In this document: one piece after another, positions 17,817-29,803 of the stretch
Position numbering within the stretch: the first letter of the stretch is position 1
Layout of the letters: each line of letters starts with the position of its first letter
Source of the DNA: Ammonifex degensii KC4
GTDB taxonomy: Bacteria > Bacillota > Desulfotomaculia > Desulfotomaculales > Ammonificaceae
Reading direction: 5' to 3'
NCBI RefSeq assembly: GCF_000024605.1
Contig: NC_013385.1
Span: 1,173,501-1,237,500, forward strand
DNA: 64,000 bases
Notes under the pieces: model-generated
Databases searched by the model: none
What the model was told of the DNA's origin: nothing
What the model saw: the letters and a program-made list of their open reading frames with translations, nothing else
Position numbers and translations under genes: made by a program

Positions 17817-18447
17817 GGTGACTACATTATATCACCTATTTTGCCCTATGTCTACTTAATCAGTCAACTGCTGGCTACCCCGGAAAGCCTTTACCGCCTG
17901 CTCCTGCGCCTGCGCGCGGCCGGGTACCGGGTGGAAGATCTTCCGCCGGACGCAGCCAGTCTTTTCCAGTCCGTCCTAGAGGGCTTGACCAACGACCCCA
18001 ACTGGTCTCCCCCGGAAACCAAGGGGAAAGAGGCAGCCACCAGGATTCCTCTTGACCGTCTGGAAAAGTAGCTTGCTTCCCTCCCCCCGGCCGTGCGTAA
18101 GAGGCTTGAAAGCAACTGGGGGAGCCCTCCGGGAAAGGTCATGACCTGGGGAAAGGAGACCCTGATCCCGGGACGCTTCTTCGGCAACGTGTTCGTGGGA
18201 CTGCAGCCGCCGCGGGGGTTCGAGACCCAGCTGGAGGCTGCCTACCACGACCCCGACCTCTCTCCTCCCTACCAGTACCTGGCCTTTTACCGCTGGCTGG
18301 AGGAAGATTTCGGTGCACATGCGGTCTTGCACCTGGGGAAAGCACGGTACGCTGGAGTGGCTGCGCGGCAAGGGAGCCGGGCTTTCCGCTTCCTGTTTTC
18401 CCGATCTGGTCCTGCGGACCCTTCCCAACGTCTACCCCTACATCGTG

Positions 18448-18483
<36 letters not shown>

Positions 18484-20506
18484 TCATGGGCCTGCATCGT
18501 GGACCACCTAGTGCCAGCCATGACCTCGGCCGGCAAGTACGAGCACCTGGAGGCGCTGGAGACCCTCTGCCGGGAATACCAAGAGGCTCTGCACCTCGAC
18601 CCGGCCCACCTCCCCAGGATAAAAGAAGCAATCTGGGAAAAAGTTAAAGAGAGCGCTCTGAACCGCGACCTGGGGGCGACCGAAGAAGACCTGGCCAACT
18701 TTCCCTCTTTCCTGGAACGCCTGCACGCCTACCTGCACGAGGTGAGCGATTCCCTGATCAGGGAGGGGCTGCACATCCTGGGCGAGCCACCGCAGGGAGA
18801 GAAGCTGGTGAACTTCCTGGGCGCTCTGTGTCGCCTGCCCCACGGGGAGCTCCCTGCATTGCGGGAAGCGGTGGCCGAAGCTCTGGGCTTTTCCTACCAG
18901 GAGTTGGAGGAGAACCCCAGTCGCTGGTATTCGGAACTCCAGACCACCGCTGCCGCCCTGCTCGACCGGGTGGAGGAAAAGACCAGAGAGCTGCTGGAGG
19001 CTCTGGTGCGGAAAAACTTCGATCCTGTCTCCTGCCCGGAAATCGTGGCCGGGGTGCTGGGGAAGGAAGACCGGCAGGTGGCCCGGGTGCTGGAGTTCGT
19101 GGCCCGGGAAATCTGGCCTCGCCTCGAAGGGGTGCGAGGAGAGATTGAGGCCTGCGTGACAGGTCTTTCCGGGAGCTATGTCCCTCCGGGGCCCTCAGGT
19201 GCTCCCACCCGGGGCAGGATCGACGTCCTCCCCACCGGCAGGAACTTTTACTCGGTTGATCCTCAGGCCCTTCCGACCAGATCGGCCTGGGAGGTGGGCA
19301 AACATCTGGCCGAGCTCTTCCTGGCCCGCTACCTGGCCGAGCGCGGCGCCTACCCGGAGAACGTGGGGATGATCATCTGGGCCACCAACGAGATGCGCAC
19401 CGGTGGAGAGAACATCGCCCAAGCCCTTTACCTCATGGGGGTAAGGCCGGTGTGGGAGGAGGCCACCGGTCGGGTGAGGGGGCTGGAGCTCATTCCCCGG
19501 GAGGAGCTGGGGCGGCCGCGCCTGGATGTCGTCCTGCGCGTCTCCGGCCTCTTCCGCGACAGCTTCCTTGAATATCATCCACCTGCTTGACGATGCCGTG
19601 CGCCGGGTGGCCGAGTGCGAGGAGGAGGATAACCTGATAAGGAAGCACTTCCTGGAAGAGATAAGATCTGCCACGGCCGAAGGTCAGAGCGAGGAAGAAG
19701 CACGGGAGCAGGCCCTTTACCGCATCTTCTCCGACCCTCCGGGTGCCTACGGGGCCGGGGTGAACCACGTGATCGACGAGAGCAACTGGAAGGACGCCCA
19801 GAACTTAGCTCGGGTTTACCTCACCTGGGGAGGGTACGCCTACGGGCGCCACTTTTACGCCAGAGAGGCCAAGGAGGTCTTCGCCCGGCGCCTGGCCCGG
19901 CTCGACGCCACCCTCAAGAACGAGGACAGCCGGGAAATAGACATCTTCGACGACGACTGCTTCTACGCTTACCACGGGGGAATGATCGCCGCCGCCCGCG
20001 CCCTGGGGGCCAACCCCATGAGCTTTGTGGGCGACTCCTCCGACCCCCGCAAGGTGAAGGTGCGCACCTTACTGGAGGAGACACGGAGGCTTTTCCGGGC
20101 GCGGGTGCTCAACCCCAAGTACATCAAAGGAATGCAGGAGCACGGGTTCAAGGGGGCGGGGGATCTCTCCCGCATGGTGGACTACATCTTCGGCTGGAGC
20201 GCCACCGCCCAGGTGATTGAGGACTGGATGTACGCGGGCCTGGCCGAAAAATACGCCCTCGACCCGGAAGTGGCCGGGTGGATGAAGGAAGTCAATCCCT
20301 GGGCGCTACATAACATCCTGGCCAAGCTCCTGGAGGCGATAGGCCGAGGGCTCTGGCGGCCAACACCGGAGCTGGAGGAGAAGCTAAAGGCCCTTTACCT
20401 GGAGGTGGAGGGGCTGTTGGAGGAAAGGTCCTGAGGCGATCCTCTACCACCCCGCCTAGAAAGCGGTGCAGCTCGCTGATCGCCTCCCGGCTCATGGTGT
20501 GGCAGA

Positions 20507-20541: not shown

Positions 20542-20599
20542 TCTGGTGCCGGAGGCGGGAGTCGAACCCGCACGGGCAAAGCCCAGAGGATTTTAAGTC
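20542..20599 (-). repeat. attL: displaced 3' fragment of tRNA-Leu
   Basis: 58 bases identical to 28286-28343. It covers the CCA end through the T and variable arms to the anticodon stem. The match then breaks, so this copy cannot form a tRNA. Just inside, short inverted repeats CGTGCCGGG/CCCGGCACG and CCTGTGG/CCACAGG (20625-20710) could be integrase arm sites. Confidence 0.9.
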
Positions 20600-20732
20600 T
20601 CCCGCATTCGCCGGGCCTGCAAGCCCGTGCCGGGCCTGGCCTCCCCAACCCCGGCACGCCAGGCGGTGAGGACTTCCCCCCTCGTGCCTGTGGAATTCGC
20701 CACAGGGGAGCAGGGTTCCTCCTGTTTCACCG

Positions 20733-21662
20733 TCAAAAATCCTCCCTGATGGCCCGCCAGCCGATCTCCCTCAGCGTGGTCTTGTCGCGCTCCCCTCTCT
20801 GCCACGCCCGCTTGACGGCGGCTATGGCCTTCCGGTACTCCTCTTCCGTGATCTTCCCCCGCCTGCGGTACACGTGGAAGCAGCTCTCGACAATGCGGCG
20901 GTCGTATGTGCTCAGCCTTTTCTTCCCCACCTCGACCCTCACCTCCTTCGCGCAGAGGTAAAGCAACAGGCCGTCCACGAGGCTGGATGGCCGGACTTCC
21001 AGCACGCCATCCCGCCACTCGGCCCGGAAGCTCACGAACGGCGCGTGGGCCTGGAGCTGGGCCTGGGCGTAGCGTGTGATCTCTTCCCGCGTGGTGGGCC
21101 ATTCCTGTGGCAAGTGGAACACGGGCCAGTCGCCCTCCCCGGCGGGCACCCACACGGGCAGGAAGTTCACCATGTCAACCACAGTGAAGGCCCTCTCGCC
21201 CGGCCCGCCCAGAACCACGCCCTCCCCCTCACGCACGGCCACGGCCAGGCGCTCCTCCTCAGGAACTCCCTCGGCGTAGCGCTTGAAGGGGCCGAGAACC
21301 CAGCGCTCGATCCAGAACACGGCGGGAGGCCTGCGTTCGAGCAGTAGACGCGTGGCCAGCAGGAAGAAGAGGCCGAGGAGCCGCCTGGCGGCCTCCCTCT
21401 CGGCCACCGGGCCACCGAAGAAGTTGCCGTAGCGGGCCAGCAGGCCCTCGACCGTGAGCTGGCCCTCCACCACGTCCAGCACGGCCTGGGCAAGCTCTTC
21501 CAGAACCACCCTCCTCACCCGGCCACAGCGGACGGGGACTAAAACCCTCTCCACAGGCGGGAGGCCCAACCTGCGGGCGATGGCCTCGCGCAGGGGATCG
21601 CGCAGAGGCTCCTCCCTGACCACCACACGCGCGGGGTAAGTGTAGAGCCTGGTACCGAGCAC
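20733..21662 (-). CDS. Unknown element protein, 309 aa
   Basis: GTG start at 21662 behind AGGAGGTGA with ten bases spacing. It is transcribed away from the regulator/replication genes. The middle is hydrophobic and arginine-rich (ARRLLGLFFLLATRLLLERRPPAVFWIERW, about residues 92-120). The C-terminus is basic and helical (RRIVESCFHVYRRRGKITEEEYRKAIAAVKRAW), resembling a DNA-binding tail. I recognise no family. Its place at the element's end, opposite the replication operon, suggests cargo or a control function. Confidence 0.6.
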   Translation of the reverse strand: MLGTRLYTYPARVVVREEPLRDPLREAIARRLGLPPVERVLVPVRCGRVRRVVLEELAQAVLDVVEGQLTVEGLLARYGNFFGGPVAEREAARRLLGLFFLLATRLLLERRPPAVFWIERWVLGPFKRYAEGVPEEERLAVAVREGEGVVLGGPGERAFTVVDMVNFLPVWVPAGEGDWPVFHLPQEWPTTREEITRYAQAQLQAHAPFVSFRAEWRDGVLEVRPSSLVDGLLLYLCAKEVRVEVGKKRLSTYDRRIVESCFHVYRRRGKITEEEYRKAIAAVKRAWQRGERDKTTLREIGWRAIREDF

Positions 21663-21762
21663 CGCCCGGTCACCTCCTATGTCCTGCAGTTGTCCTACAC
21701 CTACAGTTTACACTGGAACCGGTAGAAAACGCAAGCCCAAAGCGAAGGGAGGAGGCGAGGAA

Positions 21763-21966
21763 ATGTTGCGTTTCGTAGCCGAGAGGAAAAAGCGCGGATG
21801 GTCTCAATTTGAACTCGCGCGGCGAACTGGCATCCACCCTTCCAACCTCTCGAAGCTTGAGCGCGGTGTTTGGCCTGTTTACCAAGGCTGGCGGATAAAA
21901 ATCGCCGAGGCCTTGGGCTGGCCCCTTGATCGGCTCGACGAGCTGTTTGAGGAGGTGCGGGAATGA
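21763..21966 (+). CDS. Small XRE-family HTH regulator
   Basis: 67 residues. The helix-turn-helix is WSQFELARRTGIHPSNLSKLERG (residues 13-35), a Cro/CI type. ATG 21763 follows GGGAGGAGGCGAGGA. The stop overlaps the next start (ATGA at 21963-21966), so it is co-translated with the primase-polymerase, as expected for a copy-number or lysogeny-type regulator. The region 21663-21762 between it and the divergent 309 aa gene should hold both promoters. Confidence 0.8.
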   Translation: MLRFVAERKKRGWSQFELARRTGIHPSNLSKLERGVWPVYQGWRIKIAEALGWPLDRLDELFEEVRE

Positions 21967-22814
21967 ACGAGCTGGCCGAAGCGGCGGTCTGCTACGCCGA
22001 AAGGTTTGGCTGGGCGGTGCTCCCGCTTCATTCAATCGCAGGTGGCCGCTGCACCTGCGGGCGGGTGAACTGCCCAAGCCCCGGCAAGCACCCTTTGACG
22101 CAGCACGGCGTGAAAGAAGCCAGCAAAGACTCAGAGACCATCGCGGCCTGGTGGCGCAGGTGGCCCTGGGCCAACATCGGCGTGGCCACCGGCTCCATCA
22201 GCGGCTTCTTCGTCCTCGACGTGGACGGCCCTGAAGGCGAGGACTCCCTCTACGAACTGGTAAAGCGGCACGGCGAGCTGCCGGAGACCGTGGAGCAGAT
22301 TACCGGCTCGGGTGGCCGCCACCTGCTCTTCCGGATGCCTGAGGGCCGGGCCATCGGGAACAAAGTGAGGCTGGCTCCCGGCCTGGACGTTCGCGGAGAG
22401 GGCGGCTACGTCGTGGCGGCACCCTCACTCCACGCCAGCGGGAGGCGCTATGAATGGGAGTTTTCCTCCAGGCCGGGTGAAGTCGAAGTCGCCGAAGCGC
22501 CCGGCTGGCTCCTGGAGCTTCTGGCCGGGCCAGCAGGAAGCCAAGGCCGCCCGGTGGAGGAGTGGCGGCAATTGATCTCCGGGGGCGTGGAGGAAGGCCA
22601 GCGCAACAACTCGATCGCCGCCTTGGCCGGGCACCTGCTGCGGAAGAGGGTCGATCCCTACGTGGCGCTAGACTTGCTTCTGGCTTGGAACCAGGTCAAG
22701 TGCAGGCCACCCCTTCCAGACGAAGAGGTGGTGCGCACGGTGGACAGCATCGCAAAGAAAGAGCTGGAAAGGAGGCTAGGGAAATGGTGGAGATGGAGCA
22801 CATCAGGCGCTTAG
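21963..22814 (+). CDS. Bifunctional primase-polymerase (AEP family)
   Basis: 283 residues. The archaeo-eukaryotic primase fold is shown by the catalytic FVLDVDG (residues 76-82, D-x-D), GSGGRHLLFRM with the conserved histidine, and GLDVRGEGGYVVAAPS. The N-terminus has GRCTCGRVNCPSPGKHP, a zinc-binding-like loop typical of prim-pol proteins of plasmids and phages. The C-terminal region (NNSIAALAGHLL, LLLAWNQVKCRPPLP) resembles the PriCT-like helper domain. It likely primes or copies the excised element. It overlaps the next gene by 31 bases. Confidence 0.88.
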   Translation: MNELAEAAVCYAERFGWAVLPLHSIAGGRCTCGRVNCPSPGKHPLTQHGVKEASKDSETIAAWWRRWPWANIGVATGSISGFFVLDVDGPEGEDSLYELVKRHGELPETVEQITGSGGRHLLFRMPEGRAIGNKVRLAPGLDVRGEGGYVVAAPSLHASGRRYEWEFSSRPGEVEVAEAPGWLLELLAGPAGSQGRPVEEWRQLISGGVEEGQRNNSIAALAGHLLRKRVDPYVALDLLLAWNQVKCRPPLPDEEVVRTVDSIAKKELERRLGKWWRWSTSGA

Positions 22815-24076
22815 CGGAGCTGGAGGCGGAGGAGAGGCGTCTCCTGCTCGAAGAGACCAATTCGCCACCGGAGGAGGTTCTTCCTCCCTTCCCGGAGGAC
22901 GTACTGACAGGCATTTGCGGGGACGTCGCCAGGCTCTTCGCCGAGCACCTGGAAGCCCCGGTGCAGTTTTGGTACTTCTCCGCGTTGACGGCTCTCGGGG
23001 CGGCCATCAGCGGGCACGTGACACTGGCAGGAGCCTTGCGGGAGCCTCCGCGCCTCTACACTGTCCTCGTTGGCGAGAGCGCAGACCCCCGGAAGTCCAC
23101 GGCCATCGAGCTGGTGAGCGACTTCTTCAAGGAGGCCCTGGGCGACCTAGCACCTTATGTCCAGCGGGGCATTGGGAGCGCGGAAGGCCTCGCGGTGGCG
23201 GTGGAAAGGCTTGGAGCCCCACGCCGCGTTTTGCTGGAGCTGGACGAGCTGAAGCTGTTCGTGGACAAGGCCATGGTTCAAGGCTCGGTTTTGCTGACCG
23301 TCGTGAACAGTTTGTTCAGCCGCGTGAACTACGACGCGCCCACGAAGCACCGAAACATCCGCTTCGAGGACACGCACCTCTCCCTGCTGGCCGCCTGCAC
23401 GAGGGAGACTTACGAATCGATGTGGACGCCTGCGTTCCTGGACATCGGCTTCGTCAACAGGCTGTGGGTGGTGCCCGGTAAGCCGACGAAGGACGTGCCC
23501 CTGCCCAGGGAGCTGCCGGAAGGCCAGGTGCAGGAGCTGAAGCGGAGGCTCAGGGAGATCGTGGAAAAGGCCACGCAGGCGACGTTCCGCATCCGCACGT
23601 GGGGCACCAAAGAAGAGGTAGCGCTCCCTTACGAGTGGAAACTGGGCATGACGCCCGAAGCCGAAAGGATTTGGAGTGAGTGGTACACGGCGCGACCCCG
23701 TGATCTCCACGCCAAGCGCCTAGAGACTTACGGCCTGAGGCTGGCCGTGCTGCTGGAGGCGTCGCGGGGCAACTTCGAAGCCATCGAAGCTGACACGATC
23801 GAAAAGGTGGTCAAGCTCCTGCGCTGGCAACACGAGTGCCGCCAGCTGCTCTTCCCCGTGGACGCGGCCACCAAGACGGCCATCGTGGAGGAGAAGATCC
23901 GCAAAACTCTGCGCCGGGCCAGGCGGATGGCCTTCCGCGATTTGTACCGTGCCATCAACGCCCAGCGGTACGGGGGCTACGTCTTCGAACTCGCGGTCAG
24001 GAGCCTGGTGGAGCTGGGCGAAGTCGAGGTGCGGGGCGGCAGGAAGCGGAGGCTCGTCGTATGGGTGGGCGAGTGA
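22784..24076 (+). CDS. DUF3987 replication-associated protein
   Basis: 430 residues with ATG 22784 behind GGAGG at eight bases. DUF3987 proteins are helicase-like ATPases paired with prim-pol proteins in plasmids and phages. Here VLVGESADPRKSTAIEL stands where the phosphate-binding loop is expected but lacks GK[ST], so it is degenerate. RRVLLELDELKLFV is Walker-B-like. SLLAACTRETYESMW, FLDIGFVNRLWVVPG and a C-terminal winged-helix-like segment (FRDLYRAINAQRYGGYVFELAVRSLVELGEVEV) follow. It likely works with the adjacent primase at the element's origin. Confidence 0.8.
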   Translation: MVEMEHIRRLAELEAEERRLLLEETNSPPEEVLPPFPEDVLTGICGDVARLFAEHLEAPVQFWYFSALTALGAAISGHVTLAGALREPPRLYTVLVGESADPRKSTAIELVSDFFKEALGDLAPYVQRGIGSAEGLAVAVERLGAPRRVLLELDELKLFVDKAMVQGSVLLTVVNSLFSRVNYDAPTKHRNIRFEDTHLSLLAACTRETYESMWTPAFLDIGFVNRLWVVPGKPTKDVPLPRELPEGQVQELKRRLREIVEKATQATFRIRTWGTKEEVALPYEWKLGMTPEAERIWSEWYTARPRDLHAKRLETYGLRLAVLLEASRGNFEAIEADTIEKVVKLLRWQHECRQLLFPVDAATKTAIVEEKIRKTLRRARRMAFRDLYRAINAQRYGGYVFELAVRSLVELGEVEVRGGRKRRLVVWVGE

Positions 24077-24274
24077 AAGTTAGATGCACCTAACTGGCAA
24101 AACCTTGAAGCTGAAATCGTTTCAAATTAGCCGCCACGACGAGCGAGCGTGAGAGAGCGTGAGAGAGGGAGAGCGAGGAAGGGCCATGTGTCAGGCAGGA
24201 GGTTTTTGGCCTTGGCGCAAAACCGAACATAGCAGCGGCAGACGGGCGAAAACGAGGCCCACAACTGTCATCGC

Positions 24275-24465
24275 TTTTTGTCATCACGCGACTTCGTGCC
24301 CGGAATCCCTTGGGCCACGCGGCTTTCCGGGCACGAAGGCAAAATTAACGGGGGGTCGAGATAGAGATCTCTCTCACCCTCGGTCTCTCTTAATTTTCCC
24401 CTCGTGCCCCTGAAAGCCTTGAGCCACCTGGCCTTCGGGCCACGAGGTGCCGTGATGACAAAAAA
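24275..24465. repeat. 190 bp imperfect palindrome, candidate replication origin
   Basis: Two arms of about 95 bases are inverted copies (both begin TTTTTGTCATCACG reading inward, with shared CGTG-CCCGGAA and AAAATTAA blocks). The left arm alone contains a perfect 14 bp hairpin (24292-24305 with 24325-24338). It lies between the prim-pol/DUF3987 operon and the next gene set. The whole 24077-24682 gap has no gene; short GAGCGTGAGA repeats stand at about 24148-24170. An origin role is inferred. Confidence 0.6.
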
Positions 24466-24682
24466 TGATGACACTTCGCCCACGCGAAATCGCGAGCCTG
24501 AACGAGCCAGGCCAAGCGTGGCCTTGTGTGGGCAAGCTAACCCACTGAACACAGCCGCCACGCCCCAAGACGGCCAAAAACTGCGAGCGGGCCGGTGGAG
24601 AGGGGCGTGGTACAGTGGGGGTGGAAAGCGGCGTGGCGAGGAGTTGCCAGCGATGGCAAATGCAGGGAGGTGAACCACAGCT

Positions 24683-24904
24683 GTGGCACTGACGAGGATT
24701 AAGATCTACCGCGTGCGCAAGGGCCTCACCTGCACCGAGCTGGCCGGGAGGCTGGGCTGTAGCCGGGCTTACCTCTCCGTCGTAGAGAACGGCACCGTGC
24801 GTGCGGGTAAGGCCTTCCGTTCCCGCCTGGCCGAGGCCCTTGGCTGTGAAGAGCGCGGTGGCTTCGCGAGGCGGGCGGTGTGTGCGTGGAGGAGGAGGAG
24901 GTGA
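24683..24904 (+). CDS. Small XRE-like HTH protein
   Basis: 73 residues. The helix-turn-helix TCTELAGRLGCSRAYLSVVENGTV spans residues 15-38. GTG 24683 stands twelve bases after GGAGG. The C-terminus is arginine-rich (CAWRRRR). It starts a cluster of small genes that run closely one after another. A Cro/Xis-like role in the element is likely. Confidence 0.65.
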   Translation: MALTRIKIYRVRKGLTCTELAGRLGCSRAYLSVVENGTVRAGKAFRSRLAEALGCEERGGFARRAVCAWRRRR

Positions 24905-24910
24905 TGAGCC

Positions 24911-24985
24911 ATGAGGTTCCTCCTCGTGTGGACGGCGTTTCTCCTCGCTGGGTTCGCGCTTGGCGTGTGGCTACTTCTCCGCTGA
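24911..24985 (+). CDS. Tiny single-span membrane peptide, 24 aa
   Basis: ATG 24911, closely preceded by GGAGGAGGAGGTGATGAG, opens a 24-codon frame. Its product begins MRFLLVWTAFLLAGFALGV and is almost entirely one hydrophobic span. It lies between two better-supported genes with tight spacing. The strong ribosome binding site is the main evidence. Chance is possible. Confidence 0.4.
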   Translation: MRFLLVWTAFLLAGFALGVWLLLR

Positions 24986-25014
24986 ACGCCAAGCTGTGGA
25001 AGGAGGTGATCTCG

Positions 25015-25419
25015 ATGCGCAGTCTGTTCCTCTGGCCCGTCCTGGCCTTCGCGCCGTGTATGCTCAGGCGGTGCCCGCCGCCTGCGGCCAACCACGCGGT
25101 GGTTGGCCGCGAGGCGAAGCGGTGGTGGGTGGTCACCTACCTGGGCAGTCCTGTGGTGGGCTTCGAGTCCATCCAGGACGCGGCTGAGTTCGCCGAAGAA
25201 CTGCGGCTGGAGACCGGCACGCCCGCCGTCGGCATCCACGAACTTTCCGCCTTCGAGGACTGGGAGCTGGACGCAGACCATCTCCTGCTGATCCCCTTCG
25301 AGGGCTGTCCGTGCCTCCGCGTCGATGGGGGCGAGATTCTGCCGGTCTGCCGGGTGCTGAGGGAAGAGGAGGAGCAAAGGCGTGCTCGTCGTCAGCCACA
25401 AAGCTGTCAAGAAGCTTGA
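25015..25419 (+). CDS. Unknown element protein, 134 aa
   Basis: ATG 25015 lies eight bases after GGAGG. The N-terminus MRSLFLWPVLAFAPCML is hydrophobic, possibly an anchor. The rest is acidic and soluble-looking (ESIQDAAEFAEELRLETG, FEDWELDADHLLLIPFEGCPCLRVDGGEIL). No family recognised. It is part of the small-gene run of the element. Confidence 0.5.
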   Translation: MRSLFLWPVLAFAPCMLRRCPPPAANHAVVGREAKRWWVVTYLGSPVVGFESIQDAAEFAEELRLETGTPAVGIHELSAFEDWELDADHLLLIPFEGCPCLRVDGGEILPVCRVLREEEEQRRARRQPQSCQEA

Positions 25420-25687
25420 AGCCAAGCTGGGCATCCGCCTGGCTTGGGTGCGGAAGGTCTTCTGCCCTGTGGGGGCCAGGGGGCCTGCCTCCCCTCCCGG
25501 CTTTCACCCTGTGGCCTGGGAGCCTGACGCTCCCGGCCTCCTGAAGCCCACATACGGCCTGTGGGAGGCCGATCTCGATGACCACTACCGGGCCACGGCA
25601 CTGCTGGGGCCTGCCTCGTGGCCCCAAGGCGCTGTGCCCTGGCCGCCCTACTCCCACAGCCACCGCCGCCACGAGGGCCGGGGATAG
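25382..25687 (+). CDS. Unknown element protein, 101 aa
   Basis: GTG 25382 overlaps the previous gene by 38 bases behind GAGGAGCAAAGG. The product begins MLVVSHKAVKKLEAKLGIRLAWV and then turns proline- and tryptophan-rich. No family recognised. Codon use resembles its neighbours, but the support is weak. Confidence 0.35.
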   Translation: MLVVSHKAVKKLEAKLGIRLAWVRKVFCPVGARGPASPPGFHPVAWEPDAPGLLKPTYGLWEADLDDHYRATALLGPASWPQGAVPWPPYSHSHRRHEGRG

Positions 25688-25947
25688 GACTTCCTCCTGC
25701 CCCTGGCCTTCTTCCTGCCGCCGCCGCGCTTGACCTTCTTCAGCAACACGAAGCCGGGGCAGTGGCGCGGGTAGCCCGCTGGCAGGACTTCCTCAAGCCC
25801 TTCCCACGCCGAGACTTCACGAGTAGAGACCTCCTCAGAGGCCTCCTCGCGGAACTCCGGCTGGGTGATGGCCGCCACCTCCTCGTGCAAGGCCCTACAA
25901 GCCCATCTTAGCACGAGGAGGGATATCACAACACCTGCCCGGCTCAC
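25648..25947 (-). CDS. Unknown element protein, 99 aa, basic C-terminus
   Basis: Convergent with the preceding gene, overlapping it by 40 bases. The N-terminus is MSRAGVVISLLVLRWACRAL. The C-terminus is strongly basic (KKVKRGGGRKKARGRRKSY), suggesting nucleic-acid binding if expressed. No family recognised. No strong ribosome binding site is seen. The stretch 25948-26140 contains no gene. Confidence 0.35.
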   Translation of the reverse strand: MSRAGVVISLLVLRWACRALHEEVAAITQPEFREEASEEVSTREVSAWEGLEEVLPAGYPRHCPGFVLLKKVKRGGGRKKARGRRKSYPRPSWRRWLWE

Positions 25948-26140
25948 AGACAGGCCTTCTAGGCCCTCAGAATGGCCGAAAATACTCGCCGCCTTCGCTA
26001 GCCACGCTTGTGTTCAGCGAAAGGTTCCGTGTGGCCGAGTTCGCGGGATTGGATCTCCCCTACCCCGCCGCCCGGCGCACCCCACGCTTCGGGCCGGGGT
26101 ACCCAGGCCCAGGCAGGAGGAGTTTGGCTCCCTCGTGGCG

Positions 26141-26192
26141 AAAAAGTTTAAGGCCGAGGGGTTCTCTCGCTTCGCTCGCTGGCCCCTCGGCC
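26141..26192 (-). terminator. Intrinsic terminator after the 215 aa coiled-coil gene
   Basis: On the minus strand GGCCGAGGGG and CCCCTCGGCC (26152-26161 and 26183-26192) form a perfect 10 bp stem followed by TTAAACTTTTT. The loop holds a second small hairpin. Confidence 0.8.
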
Positions 26193-26217
26193 TGTGGTGT
26201 GGCGGTGGGCTTCGTGT

Positions 26218-26865
26218 TTAGTCCACCGCCACAGCCAGGTAGTTCCCGCTGTCGAGCTTCTTCGCCTTCACCGCCACCTTCTCGCCGAGCTTGGCCTTGA
26301 ACTTGTCGGCGAGGCTGTTGTTGGCGTACACTTCCCGTTCGTTGCCCTCCGGCGTGGTGATCCGCACTTTCACCACGCCTTCCTTCTTGCCGCGCTCCAC
26401 GCCGGTGACCTCGCCGCGAACCCACGTCCAATCCGCCTCCCACACGCCGTTCTTCTTCGCCTCCTGCCTGGGTTCGGTGACTTCGAGGCCGAACGCCTCT
26501 AGCGCTTCTTTGTGGTTGGCTTCGATCGCCTTGGCCGCCAGGTGGAGGAGTTCCCTCGTGAGCTTCACCCTGGCCTTCACCACCTCGACCGCCGCCTCAA
26601 GCTCCTGCAGCCTCGCCTTGGCCCTCCTTTCCTCCTGGCTGAGATGCTGGTACTCCGGATCGCTCGCCAGGAAGGAGGCCATGGCCGCCTTCCTCTCCGC
26701 CTCGTTCTTGCCGTTCGACGCGGCGTGCTTCAGGGCTTCGATCTCCCTGGCCTTCCTGGCCTCCTCGACTTTCGCCAGCCTCGCCTTCACCTCCCCCGCC
26801 TCCAGGAGGAACTTCTCAAGCTCCTCCGGCAGGGTCAGCGCCTCCGCGATCAGGCCTTTGAGCAT
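26218..26865 (-). CDS. Unknown coiled-coil protein with OB-like tail, 215 aa
   Basis: The chosen start is ATG 26865, because GAGAGGGGGAG precedes it and upstream codons look non-coding. Residues 15-130 are highly charged heptad-like helix (LEKFLLEAGEVKARLAKVEEARKAREIEAL and LQELEAAVEVVKARVKLTREL). The last 65 residues (VRGEVTGVERGK, VRITTPEGNEREVYANNSLADKFKAKLGEKVAVKAKKL) are beta-rich and look like a small OB-type domain. No family recognised. A role in DNA handling of the element is a guess. Confidence 0.6.
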   Translation of the reverse strand: MLKGLIAEALTLPEELEKFLLEAGEVKARLAKVEEARKAREIEALKHAASNGKNEAERKAAMASFLASDPEYQHLSQEERRAKARLQELEAAVEVVKARVKLTRELLHLAAKAIEANHKEALEAFGLEVTEPRQEAKKNGVWEADWTWVRGEVTGVERGKKEGVVKVRITTPEGNEREVYANNSLADKFKAKLGEKVAVKAKKLDSGNYLAVAVD

Positions 26866-26967
26866 TCTGCACTCCCCCTCTCCCTCGTGTGGTGTTTGCC
26901 GGTGAGCCTTTGGCTCACCTCCTGGCTCCATCATACCACATGCCTGCTCCTGTGTCAATACCTTTCT

Positions 26968-27002
26968 CGCAAGTCGGTGAAAATTTTTCTCGCTGACTTG
27001 CG
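26968..27002. promoter_or_regulatory. Inverted repeat between divergent genes, candidate operator
   Basis: CGCAAGTC (26968-26975) and GACTTGCG (26995-27002) are a perfect 8 bp inverted repeat with a 19-base AT-rich spacer. It lies between the 215 aa minus-strand gene and the plus-strand HTH gene at 27069, so it may be the operator of that HTH protein. Confidence 0.5.
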
Positions 27003-27068
27003 CCTGTGTCTCCGGCGTGCTAAACTCAGGAGTGAAGCCAGCACTGCCACGAGGGAGGTGAGGGGCTG

Positions 27069-27284
27069 ATGCCGATCCACTGCAAGCTTTCCACCTTGCT
27101 GGGCGAGCGCCGCATGAAGATGAGCGAGCTTGCCCGCAAGACCGGCCTGGCCAAGAACACGATCCTGGCACTTTACCACGACCGCGTTCGCAAGGTGGAC
27201 TACCGGGTGCTGGAGAAGATCTGCGAAGCGCTTGGGTGCCAGGTGGGCGACTTGTTGGTTTACGAGCCTGAGGACAGGCGGTAA
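27069..27284 (+). CDS. XRE/Cro-type HTH regulator
   Basis: 71 residues of the HTH_26 type: MKMSELARKTGLAKNTILALYHDRVRKVDYRVLEKICEALGCQVGDLLVYEPE. ATG 27069 follows GGGAGGTGAGGGGCTG. It is convergent with the integrase, whose end is 15 bases away. It probably controls the divergent gene and itself through the inverted repeat at 26968-27002. Confidence 0.85.
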   Translation: MPIHCKLSTLLGERRMKMSELARKTGLAKNTILALYHDRVRKVDYRVLEKICEALGCQVGDLLVYEPEDRR

Positions 27285-27299
27285 GCCTGCCCTCCCGGC

Positions 27300-28235
27300 C
27301 TAGTCGAGGTCAAGCTTCCTCGGTGCCCGCCTGCCCATTTGCTGGAGCTTGACCACAGGCGAGGCCTTCTCGTGTATCTGGCGGACATCCTCCTGCAGGT
27401 AGCGCACATACCGCCTGGTCATGCTCAAATCCCTGTGGCCCAGGACGCGCTGTAGGGCGAAGGGATCGTTCGAGGCCTTCAGGAACTCCAGCGCGAAGGT
27501 GTGCCGCAGGCCGTAGGGCGTGACCTTGACCCCTGCCCGCTGGCAGTACTCCCTCACCCTCTCGGCCCAGTAAGTCGGGTTCATAGGCTTGCCCGTCTCG
27601 CTGGCGAAGAGGGGCACCTCCTCGCCCCACCACGAGGGCCGCGCCCTGAGCAGGCGGGCCAGGGCCTGGGCCGTGAGGGGCGAGACGACCAGCGTCCTCC
27701 CCACCCTGGTCTTCGCCACCTCGGGTCGGATGTGAAGCTCCCTCGCGGCCAGGTTGAGGTCGGAGGGCGTCACCCGCAGGAGTTCCCCCGGCCTGGCCCC
27801 CGTGTCCAGCTGTGTGAGGAGAAGGCAGTAGTCGCGCAGGCCCGCGTAAGTCTTCCTGTCGGGCTGGGCCAGGAGCCTCTTCAAGGCCTCAAGCGGGGCG
27901 TGCCGGACGCGGCTCAAGTCCTCCTTCGCCTTCCTGATGCCCTCCAGGGGATTGGCGGGCAGGTGCCCCTCCCTCACGCACCAGTTGAAGAAGGCCTTGA
28001 GGTGGCGGAGCTTGATGTTGTGGTAGCCAGGGGAACTAGGCCTGGCGAAGTAGCGGATGGCGGCCCGGCGAAGCTCCTCGTAGCCCACGAGGGGGCCGCA
28101 GAACCGCACGAACGCCGTGACGATCTTGCGGTAGGTGCTGAGGGTGAGTTCGGCCAGGCCGTCAGCTTTCCTCGCGAGGAGGAATTCCTCCAGCAGGTCG
28201 GGCAAGCTGAGGCGGATGTGGGTGAGCCTGGTCAT
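27300..28235 (-). CDS. int: Tyrosine integrase of the tRNA-Leu element
   Basis: 311 residues from ATG 28235, preceded by GGAGGGG; the longer open frame runs into the tRNA and is rejected. The N-terminal SAM-like core-binding domain (LLEEFLLARKADGLAELTLSTYRKIVTAFVRF) precedes the catalytic domain. That domain shows DTGARPGELLRV (Arg), YGLRHTFALEFL (His-Arg box), VLGHRDL and the nucleophile tyrosine in MTRRYVRY. It cuts and rejoins at the tRNA-Leu 3' end. Its position beside the intact tRNA is typical. No excisionase is clearly recognisable. Confidence 0.93.
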   Translation of the reverse strand: MTRLTHIRLSLPDLLEEFLLARKADGLAELTLSTYRKIVTAFVRFCGPLVGYEELRRAAIRYFARPSSPGYHNIKLRHLKAFFNWCVREGHLPANPLEGIRKAKEDLSRVRHAPLEALKRLLAQPDRKTYAGLRDYCLLLTQLDTGARPGELLRVTPSDLNLAARELHIRPEVAKTRVGRTLVVSPLTAQALARLLRARPSWWGEEVPLFASETGKPMNPTYWAERVREYCQRAGVKVTPYGLRHTFALEFLKASNDPFALQRVLGHRDLSMTRRYVRYLQEDVRQIHEKASPVVKLQQMGRRAPRKLDLD

Positions 28236-28285
28236 GAAAAACCCCTCCTCAGTCGTGGTAGACTCTCGGAGGGGGGAATGCGGCT

Positions 28286-28343
28286 TCTGGTGCCGGAGGC
28301 GGGAGTCGAACCCGCACGGGCAAAGCCCAGAGGATTTTAAGTC
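28286..28343 (-). repeat. attR: direct repeat inside intact tRNA-Leu
   Basis: Identical over 58 bases to 20542-20599. The element supplies this 3' half, which restores a functional tRNA-Leu. One mismatch separates the exact repeat from a few further matching bases. Confidence 0.9.
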
Positions 28344-28373
28344 CCCCGCGTCTGCCGATTCCGCCACTCCGGC
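28288..28373 (-). tRNA. tRNA-Leu (anticodon TAA)
   Basis: 86 bases with CCA encoded. The acceptor pairs GCCGGAG with CTCCGGC. The anticodon loop CTTAAAA gives TAA. The long variable arm is type II, and the T arm is GCGGGTTCGACTCCCGC. A perfect TATAAT on the minus strand (complement of 28396-28401) stands 22 bases upstream. It is the integration target of the element. Confidence 0.95.
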
Positions 28374-28429: not shown

Positions 28430-28444
28430 CTCGCCTGGAGGTAA
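28430..28444. repeat. Left 15 bp target-site duplication of the rve-type IS
   Basis: CTCGCCTGGAGGTAA is repeated exactly at 29712-29726, directly outside both inverted ends. Confidence 0.85.
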
Positions 28445-29711
28445 TGTAGAAGGGCCAGAGTTTCGTTCACAGAGGTTTTTGAAGTTGAAGAGCGTATTAA
28501 AGAGGGTGGGGATCCCCTCCCTTCTACACTTCTGGCAAGTGTACCTTAAAGAAAGGAGGAACCCCACCCGATGACATTATACCAGCAACTTAAGAGGAGC
28601 GGAAACCCCCAGGCAATCGCCCAAACCGTGGCCTCCCTCCTCACCACCTGTAGCCCTAAAGAGGTAGCCCGCATAATGGGCTGCTCCGTCCGCTGGATCT
28701 ATAAACTGCGCAAACGCCTAAACGAATCCGGCGGAAACTTGTCCGGTTGTATCCTCCCTCGCGGCCCCAAAAAAAGAATGCCCAACCGTACCCCTCAAGA
28801 ACTCGAAGCCCTAGTCGTAAAACTCGCTCAGGAAACTAACCTGGGCCCTAAACGCCTCGCCTCCCTCCTGTACCAAAGCCTTAAAATTAAGCTCTCCCCC
28901 TACACCATACGAAATATCCTCAAACGCCACCACATCCGCTGCCGCAAACGCCAAAGCAAAACAGGCTCCCGAAAATACTGGACCGACGTGCAGGCCTTCG
29001 CACCCTTCTCCTTCTGGCAGGTCGATGTAAAACACATAGCCGATAAGACAACCCTCCCAGCCGCAGCCTACTCCTCTATCCTCAAAAACCGCCTACCCCG
29101 TTACCAATTCACCGCTATCGATGTTCGAACAAGAGTGCGGTTCATAGCCTTCGCCTACTCCCTCTCTTTCGCCAACGGAATCGCTTTCCTCGTACTCCTG
29201 GCAAACTGGCTTAAAACCTTCGGCCTTAATCAAACAATCTTTATCCAGACCGATAATGGCTCGGAGTTCGGTGGCCCTCCTAACTCGAGAAAGCGTAAAC
29301 TCATGTCCCTTATCTTCTCTCGCCTTGACTGCCAGCTGCTTAACATACCCGCAGGCAGAAAAGAAGCCAACGGCTATGTAGAAAGATCACACCGCACCGA
29401 CGATGAAGAGTTCTACATCCCCTACCTGGCAGGTATCAGAAGCCAGAAGGATTTCCTTATCTCTGCCCAGAGGTGGATCCTTTACTACAACTACCAGCGT
29501 CCACATCTGGGCCGGGAACTGAACGGGAAAACTCCTATGGAAATAGCGACCTCGCTTTCCCACTACCATCCGGCTATAGGGGCTATGCCGGTGGTAGTCC
29601 TGGATCACCTGGCTCCGCACATCTTCGATGCCTACAAACTCTCTACTCTCCCGTGGGATTACCCACCCAAAAATGAAAGCCTCGCTGTGAACGAAACCCT
29701 GGCTCAATACA
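28445..29711 (+). mobile_element. IS481-like (rve DDE) insertion sequence
   Basis: The 1267 bp element has imperfect inverted ends of about 27 bases (outer TGTA, then CCAG-GTTTCGTTCACAG on both sides). The 15 bp target duplication (28430-28444, 29712-29726) is intact, so the insertion is recent. It sits between the tRNA-Leu promoter region and the terminator of the YeiH operon. Confidence 0.85.
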
Positions 29712-29803
29712 CTCGCCTGGAGGTAAAAGAAGGGGCGCCTTTGCAAGCGCCCCTGAGAGGTTTCGGTTGGAGCAGGTTTAACCCACCGAAGGCGGCGGGA
29801 TGA
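28571..29803 (+). CDS. DDE transposase, IS481-like, reading out of the IS
   Basis: 410 residues. The N-terminal helix-turn-helix is SPKEVARIMGCSVRWIYKLRKRL. The rve catalytic domain has FWQVDVKHI (first Asp), FIQTDNGSEFGG (second Asp) and the Glu region NGYVERSHRTDDEEFY. ATG 28571 follows GAAAGGAGGAACCCC closely. There is no stop inside the element: the frame runs through the right end and the duplication and stops at 29801-29803 in host sequence, adding about 30 foreign residues. Confidence 0.85.
   Translation: MTLYQQLKRSGNPQAIAQTVASLLTTCSPKEVARIMGCSVRWIYKLRKRLNESGGNLSGCILPRGPKKRMPNRTPQELEALVVKLAQETNLGPKRLASLLYQSLKIKLSPYTIRNILKRHHIRCRKRQSKTGSRKYWTDVQAFAPFSFWQVDVKHIADKTTLPAAAYSSILKNRLPRYQFTAIDVRTRVRFIAFAYSLSFANGIAFLVLLANWLKTFGLNQTIFIQTDNGSEFGGPPNSRKRKLMSLIFSRLDCQLLNIPAGRKEANGYVERSHRTDDEEFYIPYLAGIRSQKDFLISAQRWILYYNYQRPHLGRELNGKTPMEIATSLSHYHPAIGAMPVVVLDHLAPHIFDAYKLSTLPWDYPPKNESLAVNETLAQYTRLEVKEGAPLQAPLRGFGWSRFNPPKAAG
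29712..29726. repeat. Right 15 bp target-site duplication of the rve-type IS
   Basis: Exact copy of 28430-28444. It overlaps the T run of the following minus-strand terminator, so the insertion hit the tail of that terminator but duplicated it intact. Confidence 0.85.
29724..29754 (-). terminator. Intrinsic terminator of the YeiH operon
   Basis: On the minus strand AGGGGCGC pairs with GCGCCCCT (29731-29738 and 29747-29754), followed by TTCTTTTA. It lies 24 bases past the stop of the small membrane protein. Confidence 0.75.

What the first reader, a model, noticed from the sequence alone, without database searches (positions are those of the whole stretch)
20542..28343. tRNA-Leu integrated element with a self-replication module but no phage or conjugation genes
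Seen: exact 58 bp direct repeat from tRNA-Leu, integrase beside the intact tRNA, three HTH regulators, prim-pol followed by DUF3987, a long palindrome, and five small genes of unknown family. Known: prim-pol and DUF3987 co-occur in plasmids and satellites. Inferred: a small integrative plasmid or satellite that replicates after excision. The 309 aa gene, the coiled-coil/OB-like 215 aa gene and the small-gene run could be defence, copy control or packaging functions not yet described.
Basis: partly seen in the sequence, partly recalled or inferred. Interest (0 to 1): 0.8.

Follow-up and report, generated by a model that had tools for sequence, protein, structure and literature searches.

The report
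Cryptic integrative plasmid in tRNA-Leu gene
A 7.7 kb genetic passenger inserted in a leucine tRNA gene is a real mobile element: a near copy with a different integrase sits in a tryptophan tRNA gene of the same genome, a close relative lacks the insertion, and all family members carry a previously unnamed protein predicted to bind single-stranded DNA.

Summary
Observation confirmed. A 7,744 bp element lies between an exact 58 bp repeat of the tRNA-Leu(UAA) 3' part and the intact gene, with integrase, three HTH proteins, Prim-Pol/PriCT, DUF3987 and a strong palindrome. Mobility is well supported. (i) A same-genus genome has the uninterrupted tRNA-Leu site, and empty tRNA-Trp and tRNA-Gly sites. 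(ii) The same body (95% over 6.6 kb) sits at tRNA-Trp of this genome with an integrase only 50% identical. (iii) Two more elements, at tRNA-Ala and tRNA-Gly, share the 215 aa gene and the HTH_26 regulator but carry different replication genes; related genomes have further ones at tRNA-Thr, tRNA-Glu and tRNA-Leu(CAA). The 215 aa protein, in no family library searched, is predicted as a helical hairpin plus SSB-like OB fold. Best reading: an integrative plasmid-like element that excises, replicates from the palindrome with Prim-Pol/DUF3987, and coats single strands with the 215 aa protein; transfer needs a helper or DNA uptake. Excision, replication and transfer are inferred. The kind is known (cryptic tRNA-integrated Prim-Pol elements, such as Thermus ICETh2); the SSB-like core with exchangeable replication and integration modules is the new part. 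Defence, copy-control and packaging ideas found no support.

The parts
20542..20599 (.). distal attachment-site remnant: exact 58 bp copy of the tRNA-Leu 3' part
   Evidence: left flank joins directly to an uninterrupted tRNA-Leu in the relative
20733..21662 (-). 309 aa protein of unknown family, beside the distal att; homologue (35%) at the matching position of the tRNA-Glu element
   Evidence: structure model poor (pLDDT 44)
21763..21966 (+). HTH1, Cro/C1-type regulator
   Evidence: HTH_3 E 2e-9; 14 synonymous to 2 nonsynonymous codon changes
21963..22814 (+). Prim-Pol primase-polymerase with PriCT_1; AEP motifs VLDVDG, GGRH, LDVRG visible in the translation
   Evidence: 45 synonymous to 20 nonsynonymous
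22784..24076 (+). DUF3987, putative replicative helicase; P-loop-like GESADPRKST
   Evidence: 37 synonymous to 11 nonsynonymous
24264..24477 (.). about 214 nt imperfect palindrome with inner hairpins, proposed replication origin
   Evidence: identical in the tRNA-Trp copy inside a 963 nt identical run
24683..24904 (+). HTH2 regulator (frameshifted by a 13 nt deletion in the tRNA-Trp copy)
   Evidence: HTH_31 E 1e-10
24911..24985 (+). 24 aa hydrophobic ORF, possible small membrane protein
   Evidence: sequence only; uncertain
25015..25419 (+). 134 aa ORF, unknown
   Evidence: open in both copies
25382..25687 (+). 101 aa ORF, unknown
   Evidence: 100% identical in the tRNA-Trp copy
25648..25947 (-). 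99 aa ORF, coding status uncertain
26218..26865 (-). 215 aa hallmark protein: helical hairpin (1-115) + SSB-like OB fold (141-215)
26930..26958 (-). near-consensus sigma-A promoter of the 215 aa gene (TTGACA-N17-TATGAT), AT-rich AAAAATTTT upstream, dyad downstream
27069..27284 (+). HTH3 (HTH_26), divergent from the 215 aa gene in the paired elements
   Evidence: E 6e-23
27300..28235 (-). tyrosine recombinase (integrase), 311 aa
28288..28373 (-). intact tRNA-Leu(UAA), insertion target; att core 28286-28343 ends in the anticodon arm

Best explanation
A cryptic integrative plasmid-like element. Its tyrosine recombinase recombines the tRNA-Leu 3' repeats to release a 7.7 kb circle and reinserts it. 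Prim-Pol primes and DUF3987 unwinds DNA at the palindrome downstream of their operon, which acts as origin. The 215 aa SSB-like protein, made from a strong promoter and probably repressed by the divergent HTH3 regulator, coats single-stranded DNA during replication or transfer. It lacks recognised genes for transfer, so it moves between cells with a helper (most likely a conjugative element) or by DNA uptake. Shown: insertion into an ancestral intact tRNA gene, a related copy at another tRNA, gene content, mostly purifying selection on the replication genes. Inferred: excision, replication, origin, ssDNA binding, repression, transfer.
For: Empty tRNA-Leu site in the same-genus genome G001, aligned through the junction; empty tRNA-Trp and tRNA-Gly sites there. 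Second copy at tRNA-Trp with 48 bp repeat, 95% over 6646 bp, integrase 50% identical. Two more elements in the same genome at tRNA-Ala (79 bp repeat) and tRNA-Gly (about 27 bp repeat) sharing the 215 aa protein (66-73%) and HTH3. Relatives at tRNA-Thr (52 bp), tRNA-Glu (66 bp) and tRNA-Leu(CAA). Synonymous excess in Prim-Pol, DUF3987, HTH1, HTH3. Palindrome z -8.07; structured loci in most other elements. Closest Prim-Pol in the plasmid collection (62%) is on a small circular plasmid record that also has an integrase. SSB-like fold. Conserved promoter. Larger 215-family relatives lie near T4SS coupling proteins and ArdC.
Against: No free circle or attP-spanning read could be examined. The tRNA-Thr element shows only weak structure (best z -4.5), so a palindromic origin is not universal. 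In ICETh2 the Prim-Pol was dispensable for replication and limited DNA uptake instead (PMC7693054). A shared OB fold does not prove ssDNA binding. The Thermaerobacter plasmid is a different element with a D5-type helicase and no match to the 215 aa protein.
Confidence: 0.68

Rival explanations
1. A conjugation hitch-hiker (mobilizable element without relaxase): a helper conjugative element recognises an origin of transfer on it, perhaps the palindrome, and the 215 aa protein protects the transferred strand. This is a special case of the main reading that names the transfer route.
For: 215-family genes in larger elements lie near T4SS coupling proteins (E 1e-56 and 6e-55) and ArdC-type antirestriction proteins, and beside a TraG-P-loop (VirB4-like) ATPase in G071.
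Against: No relaxase among the element proteins tested; origin of transfer not testable; the plasmid contig of this genome was read only as ORFs and not searched with profiles.
Confidence: 0.3
2. A phage satellite packaged by a helper phage, like the capsid-gene-free PICMIs that use a DUF3987/DUF5906 primase.
For: Small size, integrase plus DUF3987 protein and no capsid genes resemble PICMIs (PMC10803314).
Against: No packaging gene in PHROGs apart from a chance-level HTH match; no AlpA match; no relative found in phages or viral contigs; only one weak partial terminase match in the genome, with a model that also matches most control genomes.
Confidence: 0.12
3. The Prim-Pol/helicase pair mainly limits uptake of foreign DNA, as reported for Thermus ICETh2, and the element is kept for that benefit.
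For: [quoted passage not shown]
Against: No PADLOC model matches the proteins tested; in sister elements Prim-Pol is replaced by other primase-like genes in the same element frame, which fits replication better.
Confidence: 0.15
4. A decaying, immobile remnant.
For: The tRNA-Trp copy has a frameshifted HTH2; the 309 aa gene shows little constraint (7 synonymous to 14 nonsynonymous).
Against: Integrase, Prim-Pol, DUF3987, 215 aa gene and both att sites are intact in the window copy; replication genes show purifying selection.
Confidence: 0.1

Closest known systems
Thermus thermophilus ICETh2 and its 7.6-12 kb relatives (PMC7693054)
   Same: Thermophile-type setting; tRNA target with about 47 nt repeat; tyrosine recombinase; Prim-Pol followed by a putative helicase; similar size; more than one element per genome
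   Different: tRNA-Val; identified excisionase; no 215 aa SSB-like protein with divergent HTH in the passages read; homology to ICETh2 proteins not tested here
Cryptic integrated elements with archaeo-eukaryotic primases, class iii of Kazlauskas 2018 (PMC5862659)
   Same: AEP primase, integration mostly at tRNA genes or intergenic sites with direct repeats, no phage or conjugation genes; DUF3987 noted there as a putative helicase partner
   Different: That survey covers the PrimPol-PV1 supergroup; whether this Prim-Pol belongs to it was not tested
PICMI satellites of Vibrionaceae (PMC10803314)
   Same: About 6 kb, integrase plus DUF3987/DUF5906 primase, no capsid genes
   Different: No AlpA match here, not next to fis, no evidence of a helper phage
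Thermaerobacter sp. FW80 plasmid unnamed2, NZ_CP037897
   Same: Prim-Pol 62% identical, HTH gene before it, tyrosine recombinase, small circle, own palindrome of repeats
   Different: Prim-Pol fused to D5/DUF5906 instead of DUF3987; no 215 aa match; no tRNA-like att found

Membership tests
tRNA-integrated mobile element with tyrosine recombinase | direct repeat of the tRNA 3' part, integrase beside it, empty site in a relative | tested here: met
Cryptic integrated AEP-primase element (Kazlauskas class iii) | AEP primase, att repeats, no phage or conjugation genes | tested here: met
Cryptic integrated AEP-primase element (Kazlauskas class iii) | primase of the PrimPol-PV1 supergroup | not tested
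   only the Pfam Prim-Pol and PriCT_1 matches were obtained
ICETh2-type element | Int2, Exc2 and Ppol-Hel homologues with tRNA att repeats | tested here: inconclusive
   integrase, Prim-Pol, helicase-like gene and repeats present; homology to ICETh2 proteins not compared; no excisionase identified
PICMI | AlpA regulator (PF05930 or PF12728) | tested here: not met
   the HTH proteins match HTH_3, HTH_31, HTH_26 and not these models
PICMI | integration next to fis | tested here: not met
   tRNA-Leu target
Integrative conjugative element | relaxase, coupling protein, T4SS genes | tested here: not met
   none in the ten element proteins
Integrative mobilizable element without relaxase | functional oriT | not testable with these tools
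   needs mating experiments
P4-like satellite, PICI or cfPICI | capsid-remodelling or packaging genes | tested here: not met
   no PHROG or Pfam match beyond chance level
Single-stranded DNA-binding protein (215 aa) | SSB-type OB fold | tested here: met
   model residues 143-215, Z 10.8, rmsd 1.7 A, 73 residues aligned to SsbA; PriB and RecO close behind; fold only
Single-stranded DNA-binding protein (215 aa) | binds single-stranded DNA | not testable with these tools
   needs the purified protein

The most novel reading that the evidence does not exclude
The divergent HTH_26 / SSB-like 215 aa pair is the heritable core of an undescribed lineage of integrative elements in Bacillota, into which different replication systems (Prim-Pol + DUF3987, fused Prim-Pol-DUF3987, a DnaG-type zinc-ribbon protein plus a putative ATPase, Toprim-DUF927) and different tRNA-specific integrases are exchanged, with four members side by side in one genome.
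Probability: 0.45. Interest if true: 0.62.

Novelty: new variant of a known kind. Interest (0 to 1): 0.5.

Why it matters
Many genomes carry small tRNA-inserted elements whose life cycle and route between cells are unknown. Here one genome holds four that share a small core but differ in replication genes and integrase, and a relative shows the empty sites. It names a concrete, testable hallmark (an SSB-like protein under a conserved promoter) that links these cryptic elements to conjugative ones, and gives a marker for finding more: 22 of 398 sampled genomes of the phylum (own genome included) encode relatives of it.

Tried and rejected
Pattern-based scans of genome contigs and viral contigs with DUF3987, and of viral contigs with the 215 aa protein and a relative, found no relatives; the genome-set searches did. 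Three wrong-frame requests for DUF3987, one script error and an unusable alignment for back-translation. Structure model of the 309 aa protein was poor (pLDDT 44), so its fold was not searched; it is not detectably related to the 271 aa protein at the same place in the tRNA-Thr element. PDB sequence searches with Prim-Pol, DUF3987 and the 215 profile gave only chance-level matches. Rfam: nothing but the tRNA reaches gathering score; the palindrome's match to a microRNA family is far below it. The UvsY-like match of the helical part (Z 10.7, rmsd 3.3) is not counted, since long helices score high by themselves. Terminase search of the own genome was uninformative.

Full report
Check of the observation. 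The exact 58 bp repeat is present (20542-20599 and 28286-28343; 94% over 72 bp), the second copy being part of an intact tRNA-Leu(UAA) at 28288-28373 on the minus strand. The inner end of the repeat falls in the anticodon arm, as is usual for tRNA-integrating elements (established knowledge). The element is 7,744 bp counted with one core. Pfam confirms integrase, Prim-Pol with PriCT_1, DUF3987 and three HTH proteins. No phage structural or conjugation protein was found among the ten proteins tested.

Proof that it is an insertion. In the only other genome of the genus held, the left flank runs straight through one intact tRNA-Leu into the right flank (88% over 164 columns, no element). The joined flanks of the tRNA-Trp and tRNA-Gly elements likewise align without interruption there (91% over 391 and 89% over 626 columns). 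A further piece of proof is internal: the window's body is found again at tRNA-Trp of the same genome (C1:1998131-2005452), 95% identical over 6,646 bp, flanked by a 48 bp tRNA-Trp repeat, but with an integrase 50% identical. The same body with another integrase at another tRNA means that integration module and body have been exchanged.

Mosaic history. The 301 differing sites between the two copies are not spread evenly: the longest identical run is 963 nt (23791-24754, spanning the end of DUF3987 and the palindrome), while 2,000 uniform placements never exceeded 307. Recombination or gene conversion between copies is the simplest reading. Where the copies differ, Prim-Pol (45 synonymous to 20 nonsynonymous codons), DUF3987 (37 to 11), HTH1 (14 to 2) and HTH3 (11 to 1) show constraint; the 309 aa gene does not (7 to 14), and ORF 26010-26300 behaves as non-coding (4 to 20). 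HTH2 is frameshifted by a 13 nt deletion in the tRNA-Trp copy.

A family of elements. Two further elements lie in this genome: at tRNA-Ala(CGC), 79 bp repeat at 97%, with a 941 aa protein distantly similar to DUF3987 over part of its length; and at tRNA-Gly(CCC), about 27 bp repeat, with a CHC2 zinc-ribbon protein and a 576 aa putative ATPase in place of Prim-Pol and DUF3987. Both carry the 215 aa protein (66% and 73%) and an HTH3-like gene. In other genomes of the order: tRNA-Thr(CGT), 52 bp exact repeat, about 9.2 kb, Prim-Pol fused to DUF3987; tRNA-Glu(CTC), 66 bp repeat at 97%, about 14.6 kb, with a Toprim/DUF927-like protein, an LPD38 protein and a 309 aa homologue at 35%; and a contig with tRNA-Leu(CAA), integrase, HTH3 and 215.

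The 215 aa protein. It matches no Pfam, PHROG, NCBIfam or PADLOC model beyond chance level. An AlphaFold2 model from 16 relatives (mean pLDDT 84) has a long helical hairpin, a low-confidence linker, and a five-stranded barrel with a helix after strand three. Residues 141-215 align with SsbA, other SSBs, PriB and RecO at Z about 10-11, rmsd about 2 A. This supports nucleic-acid binding, most likely ssDNA; it does not prove it. In the elements where HTH3 lies divergently beside it, the 215 gene has a TTGACA-like/TATAAT-like promoter with 17-18 nt spacing 70-95 nt upstream, with an AT-rich tract before it. The score is better than nearly all shuffles in six of the eight (0-5 of 300 reach it; two of the six are the near-identical Leu and Trp copies) and weaker in two (38 and 68 of 300), while four relatives in which no such promoter was found are not paired with a detected HTH3. 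A strong promoter facing a repressor-like gene suggests a protein needed in quantity on induction (inference). Relatives of the 215 protein occur in 22 of 398 phylum genomes sampled, some beside type IV coupling proteins and ArdC-like genes; this links the family to conjugative elements but does not show that the small elements are conjugated.

The palindrome. 24240-24500 folds as single-stranded DNA at -69 kcal/mol against -40 for shuffles (z -8.07). The tRNA-Ala, tRNA-Gly and tRNA-Glu elements and the Thermaerobacter plasmid have structured stretches of unrelated sequence, built from short inverted repeats, at z -4.8 to -9.1; the tRNA-Thr element has none as strong, and the tRNA-Gly one overlaps coding sequence. 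Placement next to the replication genes and identity between the two copies make an origin the most likely role (inference).

Mechanism, with status. Excision and integration by the tyrosine recombinase at the tRNA core: integration shown by comparison, excision inferred. Replication by Prim-Pol and DUF3987 from the palindrome: inferred; note that in ICETh2 of Thermus, the closest studied analogue, loss of Prim-Pol did not reduce replication and increased DNA uptake (PMC7693054). Coating of ssDNA by the 215 protein: inferred from fold. Control by HTH proteins: inferred. Transfer between cells: unknown; helper conjugation, DNA uptake or a phage are open, in that order.

Place among known things. 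It meets the description of cryptic AEP-primase elements integrated in tRNA genes (PMC5862659), and resembles ICETh2. It is not a PICMI (no AlpA, not at fis; PMC10803314), not an ICE, and shows no sign of a P4 or PICI-like satellite. Hence a new variant of a known kind: what is new is the conserved HTH/SSB-like core combined with exchangeable replication and integration modules, four in one genome. Whether this core has been described under another name outside the open-access library searched cannot be excluded.

Noticed in passing
window 17877-20436 versus L066 1194-4916: A CobN-like gene that is one 1,240 aa ORF in the same-genus relative is split into several ORFs in the window (184, 425 and 302 aa), so it is broken there or misread.
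   Followed up: partly
window 20519/20520 versus L066 5107-8299: About 3.2 kb present in the relative (most of a methyltransferase-like gene and an apparent metal ABC transporter operon) is missing in the window, with the break only 22 bp outside the element's distal att.
   Followed up: partly
window 28443-29712: An insertion sequence with about 20 near-identical (98-99%) copies in this genome sits just outside the tRNA-Leu end.
   Followed up: no
L009 6189-7592 and L011 11154-12611: Nearly identical transposase-like genes lie directly outside the tRNA end of two of the sister elements.
   Followed up: no
G000 contig C2 (L052, L053): The 27.8 kb second contig carries two primase-like proteins (455 and 438 aa) and an integrase-like match; its replication type was not examined.
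   Followed up: no
L039 9749-10441 (G000 C1:714.7 kb): A fifth relative of the 215 aa protein keeps the helical part but has a different C-terminus, next to a CHC2 zinc-ribbon primase-like gene.
   Followed up: partly
L021 (NZ_CP037897): The 8,456 bp plasmid record repeats its first 1,570 bases exactly at its end, so the true circle is probably 6,886 bp.
   Followed up: yes
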